Shown piece by piece: positions 1-5,161 of a stretch of DNA of 5,961 nt. The stretch comes from Candidatus Zhuqueibacterota bacterium. Its GTDB lineage: Bacteria; SM23-31. Location: NCBI GenBank assembly GCA_022562855.1, contig JADFON010000130.1:1-5961 (forward strand), given 5' to 3'. The notes under the pieces were generated by a model. It saw nothing but the letters and a program-made list of their open reading frames with translations, was not told where the DNA came from and searched no databases. Position numbers and translations under genes: made by a program. The first letter of the stretch is position 1, and the number at the start of each line of letters is the position of its first letter.

Positions 1-880
1 GGCAGTAGTAATCGCTCTTGCAAGATATTTATCACAATGCAAGATACAGAATAATAAACTTGTTGACCTTTTGATTGTGTTTGCGTTGGTTGCCGTTCCG
101 GTTTTTTTGATCAAAGAGCAACCGGACCTGGGAACTAGTTTAGTCTACTTGTCGATTATTATTCCGATACTCTATTGGGCTGGAATCCAGCCTTTTACAT
201 TATTTGTTATTTTATCGCCTTTTTTGAGCGTCGTTACATCGTTCCAGTTTATATACTTTTTGATATGGATGCTTGTAATAATCGGTGTATTATATCTATC
301 ACAAAAGAGGTTGATTGTAATTATCGGTCTGTTTTTGATTAACATTGCAGTAGGTTTGGTCACTCCCGAGTTGTGGAACAATCTAAAGCCGTATCAGCAG
401 CAGAGAATAATAATTCTTATCGATCCACAGCAAGATGCACGCGGAACCGGTTACCAGGTAATTCAATCGATGAACGCTATCGGTTCCGGGGGGATTTCCG
501 GTAAAGGTTTTTTAAAAGGGACGCAGACTCAGCTTAAATTTTTACCCGAACAAAGTACAGATTTCATATTTTCAGTACTTGGAGAAGAATTTGGGTTTAT
601 CGGGATAATGACAGTCCTATTGCTGTATTTTTTACTTATTAGCAGGATGATTTATATAGCCGTAAATGCGAAAAATAAGTTTAAAAGCCTGGTCGTGATG
701 GGTTTTGCATCTATAATTCTGTTTCATATTTTTGTTAATACCGGCATGACGGTCAATTTAATGCCGGTTACAGGACTTCCTCTTCCATTTCTTAGTTACG
801 GAGGGTCCTTTCTTGTTACGCTGCTCATGATGATCGGGATAACACTGAACATTGCATACAAACGAACGTCTTCTTATTGA
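1..880 (+). CDS. rodA: RodA, SEDS-family peptidoglycan glycosyltransferase (5' truncated by window edge)
   Basis: Polytopic inner-membrane SEDS protein that polymerises lipid II into glycan strands for side-wall elongation, normally working with a class B PBP (PBP2) in the rod complex. The frame is open from base 2 to the stop at 878-880, giving 292 visible residues. There is no start inside the window; a TTG at base 71 is only an internal codon. Family length is about 370-420 aa, so roughly 80-130 N-terminal residues are missing. Diagnostic blocks are visible: KEQPDLGT, then LKPYQQQRI, then DARGTGYQVIQS, the AIGSGGISGKG turn, GTQTQLKFLPE, TDFIF (its Asp corresponds, as I recall, to the essential catalytic Asp of RodA), GEEFGFIG, and the C-terminal NTGMTVNLMPVTGLPLPFLSYGGS signature. 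The GTQ...FLPEQSTDFIF wording favours RodA over FtsW or SpoVE. The sequence ends normally at a short Tyr-terminated tail, and hydrophobic helices alternate throughout. Confidence 0.95.
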   Translation, partial: AVVIALARYLSQCKIQNNKLVDLLIVFALVAVPVFLIKEQPDLGTSLVYLSIIIPILYWAGIQPFTLFVILSPFLSVVTSFQFIYFLIWMLVIIGVLYLSQKRLIVIIGLFLINIAVGLVTPELWNNLKPYQQQRIIILIDPQQDARGTGYQVIQSMNAIGSGGISGKGFLKGTQTQLKFLPEQSTDFIFSVLGEEFGFIGIMTVLLLYFLLISRMIYIAVNAKNKFKSLVVMGFASIILFHIFVNTGMTVNLMPVTGLPLPFLSYGGSFLVTLLMMIGITLNIAYKRTSSY

Positions 881-902
881 TTTAACTGTAATGATTTACC
901 AA

Positions 903-914
903 TGTGTTGACACT
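903..914 (+). repeat. left terminal inverted repeat of the 175-bp element
   Basis: TGTGTTGACACT, a perfect inverse of 1066-1077. It carries the hexamer TTGACA (907-912), the consensus bacterial -35 sequence, facing inward, with no good -10 at the matching distance. Confidence 0.75.
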
Positions 915-1065
915 ATTACTAACCACGTGAGTGGTCACTACGTGATAAGAAAGCAGAGATTGCCAACGTGGCGAGCGTAGCCTCCAAAAAAAGGGAGCCG
1001 CGTCAGCGGCAGGTCCAACTATTGGGCAGGTAGGCTGAGAAATCTTTAAACAAAAAGTACATAAA

Positions 1066-1077
1066 AGTGTCAACACA
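1066..1077 (-). repeat. right terminal inverted repeat of the 175-bp element
   Basis: AGTGTCAACACA, a perfect inverse of 903-914. Read on the minus strand it holds TTGACA, followed after 17 nt by TTTAAA (4 of 6 matches to TATAAT). A weak inward promoter that would transcribe the element leftward is therefore possible. Confidence 0.75.
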
Positions 1078-1090
1078 GTAGATAAAATAC

Positions 1091-1096
1091 TATAAT
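1091..1096 (+). promoter_or_regulatory. possible -10 box for lgt
   Basis: A perfect TATAAT lies 44 nt before the lgt start codon and 13 nt beyond the right end of the inserted element. The -35 window at the usual spacing falls inside the right inverted repeat (TGTCAA or nearby) and matches the consensus poorly. If used, the promoter would be a hybrid of the element end and the host sequence, or would depend on an activator. AT-rich sequence makes chance hits common. Confidence 0.3.
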
Positions 1097-1140
1097 TTAA
1101 CTATTCGGTAAGGTGTCTTAATAAATGACTGGTCAACATA

Positions 1141-4015: not shown

Positions 4016-5161
4016 ATGTCCGAAGCGATTGAAAAAGACAAGATTTTTCTGGAAATTCGTCAGACTATAAAGTTCCTGTTGCGTGAGCGGGACCAGGGCA
4101 AAGACAATTTCGAGATTTCGGATTTTTTTAAGCCGGATCTTGAAACCGAAATATTGAATAATTTTGATAATGCAATCAGCAGAAAAGAATATGAGGAAAC
4201 GGTACTTGCTCTTTTTGGGGCACAAGGAAGGAGAAGAAATATAACCATCGGAGCAGTGAGGAAAGAGGTTAATAAACTTATTCGGCAATACAGGATGCGA
4301 TCGAAGAAGCAAATCCTTCAAAAATTAATCGTTCAATTTCAGCCGGTGCCATCAGATGTGCAATTACTAAAAGATTATGTTGCGGAGAGCTATAATAGAG
4401 CGATGAAGGAACCTCTCAAATTGAAAATCGCCTCCTATGTAAAAGAAGGCACAACAAATCTTCGTAATGTTATGAGCATATTAAGGAGAGAGAAATACGA
4501 TATCGATCAAAGATTTGTAAAGGAAATACTCGAAAAGATAATCAAAGACGTTGAGAGAGTAAGAAAAAGATTACAAAGAGGGAAAACCAGCAGATCCTCG
4601 GTCAAAAAGTTTGCGACGGTAAAACCTGCTGTGGCTTCAATAAAGAGACTTCGCGACCAGATGCAAAAATCTCTTATCCGTAAAACAAAAAATAAGAAGT
4701 CGCGCTTTATCCGGGAAAAATGCCCCAAATTCCGTTTCGAATTGACAGAAAATATTGTTGAAGATAATATCCGAACGCTCATTTATTCCGGTAAAAAGGG
4801 TACGTCGGAGATAAGTGTAAGAACTTCTCTTGATAAGGACAAAATTACCGATGTTGAAATACTGTGCCTGAAGAAAGGTAACAAAAAGCCTTCTGTCTTT
4901 AGTGTCGAGGAATTTTTAATGGCGATAGAGAAAAATCAAAAAGACGTTTTTTTACAGCATTGGCTGAAAAGCGCAAATAAGCAGGTCAAATTTACTAACG
5001 TGCAGGAATTGATCTGGTATCTGCAGAGCATCCTTAATGAGAGGTTTAACCTTCCTGAAGGTGTTGCGAATTATTTAGACAAGAGATTTGTTCAGCACCT
5101 GATAGAACTGGACCTGAACTTAACTAAATATGTTATTGAAAAGGCGCTTGAAAATGTTTAA
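4016..5161 (+). CDS. Uncharacterised basic cytosolic protein
   Basis: I do not recognise this 381-aa protein. It has no signal peptide and no membrane segment, and is highly charged and mostly helical. Residues 1-67 are acidic/mixed (FLEIRQTIKFLLRERDQG, then ISDFFKPDLETEILNNF). From about 72 to 240 it is strongly basic, with Arg/Lys clusters at 72-74 (RRR), 157-159, 181-190 (RVRKRLQRGK), 207-213 and 222-233 (RKTKNKKSRFIR), which would suit RNA, DNA or acidic-surface binding. Residues 238-290 look like a small beta-rich section, and 296-381 are helical again (FSVEEFLMAIEKNQKDVFLQ, ELIWYLQSILNERF, FVQHLIELDLNLTKYVIEKA). No catalytic motif is evident. The start at 4016 is the only ATG in frame after a stop at 3995, and it has no Shine-Dalgarno sequence. 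Its stop overlaps the following gene by 8 bp, implying co-translation. It follows the flagellin gene but has its own promoter, so a motility role is not shown. Confidence 0.8.
   Translation: MSEAIEKDKIFLEIRQTIKFLLRERDQGKDNFEISDFFKPDLETEILNNFDNAISRKEYEETVLALFGAQGRRRNITIGAVRKEVNKLIRQYRMRSKKQILQKLIVQFQPVPSDVQLLKDYVAESYNRAMKEPLKLKIASYVKEGTTNLRNVMSILRREKYDIDQRFVKEILEKIIKDVERVRKRLQRGKTSRSSVKKFATVKPAVASIKRLRDQMQKSLIRKTKNKKSRFIREKCPKFRFELTENIVEDNIRTLIYSGKKGTSEISVRTSLDKDKITDVEILCLKKGNKKPSVFSVEEFLMAIEKNQKDVFLQHWLKSANKQVKFTNVQELIWYLQSILNERFNLPEGVANYLDKRFVQHLIELDLNLTKYVIEKALENV

What the first reader, a model, noticed from the sequence alone, without database searches (positions are those of the whole stretch)
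903..1077. Short mobile-like repeat with perfect 12-bp inverted ends and a folded GC-rich core between rodA and lgt
The exact inverse pair TGTGTTGACACT / AGTGTCAACACA encloses 151 bp of non-coding, GC-rich sequence with several tetraloop-type hairpins. This matches a MITE, or an element that could be transcribed as a structured RNA. No transposase and no clear target duplication are visible, so the family is unidentified and may be new.
Basis: partly seen in the sequence, partly recalled or inferred. Interest (0 to 1): 0.6.

Follow-up and report, generated by a model that had tools for sequence, protein, structure and literature searches.

The report
Small hitchhiking transposon of IS481 type
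The sequence between rodA and lgt is a 208-base non-coding "hitchhiker" transposon whose ends match a complete IS481-type jumping gene elsewhere in the same genome; it is a real mobile element, but of an ordinary, well-known kind.

Summary
The 12-bp inverted pair is the core of longer, imperfect terminal repeats of about 30 bp. The element is 887-1094 (208 bp), flanked by the direct repeat ATTTAAC (880-886, 1095-1101). The same genome holds two more short elements with such ends and 7-bp direct repeats (C304, 279 bp; C157, 213 bp). It also holds two complete 1.17-kb insertion sequences with matching ends (C91, C77), whose single gene is an IS481-family transposase (NF033577, 263 bits, cut-off 224). 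In a same-family genome the rodA stop lies 12 bp before lgt with no insert. The interior is not derived from the insertion sequence found: it is a mosaic of palindromic repeats that also occur alone elsewhere in the genome, and these give the GC-rich hairpins. The fold is not shared among copies, so a dedicated structured RNA is not supported. Best reading: a low-copy MITE moved in trans by an IS481-family transposase, a new member of a known kind and of low general interest. The mosaic interior is the only unusual feature.

The parts
880..886 (.). target-site duplication, left copy (ATTTAAC); its first base is the last base of the rodA stop codon TGA 878-880
   Evidence: exact 7-bp direct repeat abutting both ends
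887..1094 (+). complete element (MITE), 208 bp
   Evidence: ends aligned with 12 other termini in the same genome; direct repeat on both sides
887..919 (+). left terminal inverted repeat, TGTAATGATTTACCAATGTGTTGACACTATTAC
   Evidence: alignment of ends; 97% identical to C304 over the first 79 bp of the element
923..948 (+). internal dispersed palindromic repeat CCACGTGAGTGGTCACTACGTGATAA, present alone at seven other loci without the ends
957..971 (+). remnant of dispersed repeat R1 (AGATTGCCACGTCGCTACGCTCCTCG in the other two copies), cut short here
   Evidence: alignment with C304 and C157; 8 genomic places with R1
972..1045 (+). variant of dispersed repeat R2 (CGAGCGTAGCC..GAGAAATCT) with a GC-rich hairpin stretch in its middle; source of the folded core
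1059..1094 (-). right terminal inverted repeat, TATAGTATTTTATCTACTGTGTTGACACTTTTATGT read on the minus strand; close to the transposase-proximal end of the IS
   Evidence: 93-96% identity to IS_C77 and IS_C91 ends over 25-31 bp; alignment
1095..1101 (.). target-site duplication, right copy (ATTTAAC)

Best explanation
The element at 887-1094 is a MITE: a short, non-coding, non-autonomous transposon with ~30-bp imperfect terminal inverted repeats (TGTA...TACA type). Inferred mechanism: the IS481-family DDE transposase encoded by full-length IS copies in the same genome binds the GTGTTKACA-containing ends in trans, cuts and joins them, and inserts the element in A+T-rich DNA, duplicating 6-7 bp of target (here ATTTAAC just after rodA). 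Shown here: related ends, duplications, several copies with different flanks, intact partner transposase genes, and an uninterrupted rodA-lgt junction in relatives. Inferred: that this transposase moved this element, and that it still can. The GC-rich folded interior consists of dispersed palindromic repeats that occur elsewhere in the genome on their own, either captured by or inserted into the MITE ancestor; no function of theirs is shown.
For: Ends: 14 termini from 3 short elements, 2 complete ISs and 4 partial or solo copies align on TGTA.T..TTT.TC....GTGTTKACA; reversed control 0 hits. Partner: L047:1564-2628 is an IS481 transposase above its curated cut-off with rve and HTH domains; the C77 copy is 88% identical and intact, C287 is partial. 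The ISs are 1170 and 1171 bp. Duplications: ATTTAAC (window), ATTAATG (C304), AATTATT (C157), each 7 bp; random A+T-rich flank pairs reach 7 bp with frequency 0.003. Uninterrupted junctions: in relative G002 the rodA stop is 12 bp before lgt; G003 and G005 also have gaps under 20 bp. No match in 40 other genomes searched, nor in the plasmid and phage collections. Published IS481 features, TSDs of 2-15 bp and mostly 6, and TGT...ACA ends in the related IS481EU, agree (PMC10045372).
Against: Copy number is low (three found). The two complete ISs lack clear duplications, though IS copies without duplications are well documented (PMC11708052). Similarity to the IS found is confined to the ~30-bp ends, so the MITE is not a simple internal deletion of that IS. 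In C157 the duplication is offset by one base, so one end is uncertain by 1 bp. The relatives with uninterrupted junctions are only 50-54% identical in Lgt, so they are not strict same-species empty sites. Transposition itself was not observed.
Confidence: 0.93

Rival explanations
1. A structured non-coding RNA or cis-regulatory leader of lgt that happens to have inverted ends.
For: Strong predicted fold of the whole stretch (z -5.1) and a position directly upstream of lgt.
Against: No Rfam family match. The same ends lie at unrelated loci. The copies have different interiors and folds with weaker z-scores (-2.8, -1.7). Absent from the lgt leaders of relatives.
Confidence: 0.03
2. A REP/REPIN-type palindromic repeat array, moved by a RAYT-like transposase rather than by the IS481 enzyme.
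For: The interior modules are palindromic and dispersed on their own.
Against: The unit that has direct repeats and conserved ends is bounded by IS481-type termini, not by the palindromic modules, and the modules occur without those ends. A RAYT gene was not searched for.
Confidence: 0.03
3. A chance inverted repeat in an A+T-rich gap.
For: A 12-bp pair arises in 10% of shuffled windows.
Against: Recurrence of the ends at many loci, duplications and a transposase partner.
Confidence: 0.01

Closest known systems
IS481 family insertion sequences (NCBIfam NF033577; PMC10045372)
   Same: TGT...ACA-type ends, short target duplications, and a single DDE transposase gene in the partner copies C91 and C77.
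   Different: The window element carries no transposase gene and shares only its ~30-bp ends with the partner IS.
Bacterial MITEs, e.g. MITECca01 of Cardinium (IS982-derived, about 240 bp; PMC9769881)
   Same: Length of 200-280 bp, no coding capacity, ends matching an IS in the same genome.
   Different: Partner family is IS481 rather than IS982; only three copies; the interior is a mosaic of other dispersed repeats rather than a remnant of the IS.
Non-autonomous IS481EU families of parabasalids (PMC10045372)
   Same: Non-autonomous elements with TGT...ACA ends related to IS481-type transposases.
   Different: Eukaryotic hosts, and different duplication lengths (about 4, 15 or 25 bp).
REP/REPIN palindromic repeats
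   Same: The interior modules (R1, R2, CCACGTGAGTGG...) are short, dispersed and palindromic.
   Different: The element as a whole is bounded by IS-type ends with target duplications; no link to a RAYT was tested.

Membership tests
MITE | short length, under about 300 bp | tested here: met
   208, 279 and 213 bp
MITE | terminal inverted repeats | tested here: met
   ~30-bp imperfect ends with a 12-bp exact core
MITE | no transposase gene inside | tested here: met
   only a 64-aa antisense frame overlaps it
MITE | target-site duplication | tested here: met
   7-bp direct repeats at all three copies
MITE | several copies with different flanks | tested here: met
   three copies, C136, C304, C157; copy number is low
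MITE | ends match an autonomous partner in the same genome | tested here: met
   C91 and C77 ISs
MITE | mobilised in trans by the partner transposase | not testable with these tools
   needs an experiment
IS481 family (as mobilising partner) | IS481-family DDE transposase | tested here: met
   NF033577, 263 bits against cut-off 224, E 3.5e-78; the next best model, IS3, is below its cut-off
IS481 family (as mobilising partner) | TGT...ACA termini | tested here: met
   TGTA...TACA in both ISs, C304 and C157; the window's right end reads TATA, one substitution
IS481 family (as mobilising partner) | TSD of 2-15 bp, mostly 6 bp (PMC10045372) | tested here: met
   6-7 bp at the three short elements; near match (C77) or none (C91) at the full ISs
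Structured RNA family | match to a known family or a fold shared by the copies | tested here: not met
   no Rfam match at gathering score; folds differ among copies
REP/REPIN | bounded by REP palindromes and associated with a RAYT transposase | tested here: inconclusive
   interior modules are REP-like and dispersed, but the bounds are IS-type; RAYT not searched

The most novel reading that the evidence does not exclude
The IS481-type MITE acts as a carrier that collects and spreads the genome's own palindromic repeats (R1, R2, CCACGTGAGTGG...), so that those repeats are dispersed partly by an IS481 transposase in trans, and the MITE interior is a record of repeat capture.
Probability: 0.12. 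Interest if true: 0.4.

Novelty: new member of a known kind. Interest (0 to 1): 0.2.

Why it matters
It documents a bacterial MITE whose autonomous partner is an IS481-family IS in the same genome, in a phylum of which only six genomes were held in the genome set searched. My literature searches turned up no detailed description of an IS481-linked bacterial MITE, though they cover open-access papers only. It also explains a folded intergenic stretch upstream of lgt that could be mistaken for a regulatory RNA. Otherwise it is an ordinary mobile element.

Tried and rejected
Rfam scan: no match. Plasmid and phage collections with the element: no match. I first suspected IS21 (repeated motifs near the end) and IS66 (GTAA start, 8-bp duplication); both were dropped once the transposase scored as IS481, IS21 being far below its cut-off. 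A strict fixed-length pattern for the ends missed most copies because of a 1-bp indel before GTGTT; the gapped pattern recovered them. Literature searches for IS481-derived MITEs gave no detailed bacterial case; searching papers for the repeat letters gave only unrelated hits among those listed. A promoter-like match at 1067-1096 is at chance level (1 found, 0.8 expected).

Full report
What is there. The window (G000:C136, a draft genome of 2.51 Mb in 491 contigs, 79.6% complete) carries rodA (2-880), lgt (1141-1956), a TPR protein, a flagellin and two further genes. On its own a 12-bp pair is not remarkable: 10% of dinucleotide shuffles of the window contain one.

True extent. Comparison with the rest of the genome shows that the 12-bp pair is the inner part of a longer terminal repeat. 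A second element at C304:1034-1312 is 97% identical to the window element over its first 79 bp and 95% over its last 61 bp, with a different middle and different flanks. A third, at C157:3166-3378, has ends of the same type and parts of the interior. The three are 208, 279 and 213 bp long. Each is flanked by a 7-bp direct repeat: ATTTAAC at 880-886/1095-1101 in the window, ATTAATG at C304, and AATTATT at C157, the last offset by one base on one side. Random A+T-rich flank pairs reach 7 bp with a frequency of 0.003. The exact duplication length is 6 or 7 bp, depending on the side to which one terminal A/T is assigned (inference from the sequences).

Partner. Ends of the same type bound two complete insertion sequences, C91:1487-2656 and C77:1440-2610 (1170 and 1171 bp, 87% identical). 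Each has one intact gene. The C91 protein scores 263 bits against the NCBIfam IS481 model (cut-off 224, E 3.5e-78) and has HTH and rve domains. The C77 protein is 88% identical, and a partial copy lies at C287. Further solo or contig-edge ends lie at C87, C72 and probably C277. The features agree with published ones: IS481 members make 2-15 bp duplications, mostly 6 bp, and the related IS481EU elements have TGT...ACA termini (PMC10045372). The full ISs lack a clean duplication (C77 has a near match), a known occurrence after recombination, decay or adjacent deletion (PMC11708052).

Uninterrupted site. In the same-family genome G002 the rodA stop codon is followed by 12 bp and then lgt; in G003 and G005 the gap is also under 20 bp. 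None of 40 other genomes searched has a match to the element. The insertion is therefore specific to this lineage as far as it is sampled. Because these relatives are distant (Lgt 50-54% identical), this supports recent insertion without proving it.

Interior. The MITE interior does not resemble the IS: similarity stops after the ~30-bp ends. It is built from dispersed palindromic repeats found elsewhere without the ends. CCACGTGAGTGGTCACTACGTGA occurs at seven other loci. R1, AGATTGCCACGTCGCTACGCTCCTCG, has 8 places within 3 mismatches, and R2, GTCATTTCGAGCGTAGCCGAGAAATCT, has 9. C304 and C157 keep the order R1-spacer-R2; the window copy has lost most of R1 and carries an R2 variant with a GC-rich hairpin stretch in its middle. 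The fold as a whole is driven partly by the inverted ends (z -5.1 with ends; -2.2 without) and is not shared with the other copies. No Rfam family matches.

Mechanism. The most likely course, partly inferred, is that the IS481-family transposase acts in trans on the GTGTTKACA-bearing ends of the MITE and inserts it in A+T-rich DNA with duplication of 6-7 bp. Related ends, duplications, several copies and intact partner genes are shown. Trans-mobilisation and current activity are not. At this site the gap between rodA and lgt is 260 bp; without the element and one copy of the duplication it would be 45 bp. Any effect on lgt expression is unknown.

Verdict. This is a new member of a known kind. 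The one unusual aspect is the mosaic interior of dispersed palindromes, which could mean that the MITE carries and spreads them; the present evidence does not decide this.

Noticed in passing
L047 (C91) 1541-1566, with matching places in L048 and L049: The ISs carry a strong palindrome (AAGGGATAGGC..GCCTATCCCTT) between the transposase-proximal end and the gene, possibly a terminator or attenuator against read-through from outside.
   Followed up: no
L011, L012, L013, L017 (C99, C251, C118, C417): R2-like dispersed repeats with variable runs of short GC-rich units (AGGCCCAACTACGGGGC...), apparently expanding and contracting between loci.
   Followed up: partly
L050 (C72) 1956-2006: A solo MITE-type end without a partner end, lying between inverted copies of a different repeat (TTGACACTGATCTCCACTGATTT).
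   Followed up: partly
window 4016-5161: A 381-aa protein with no Pfam or NCBIfam match, downstream of a flagellin gene.
   Followed up: no
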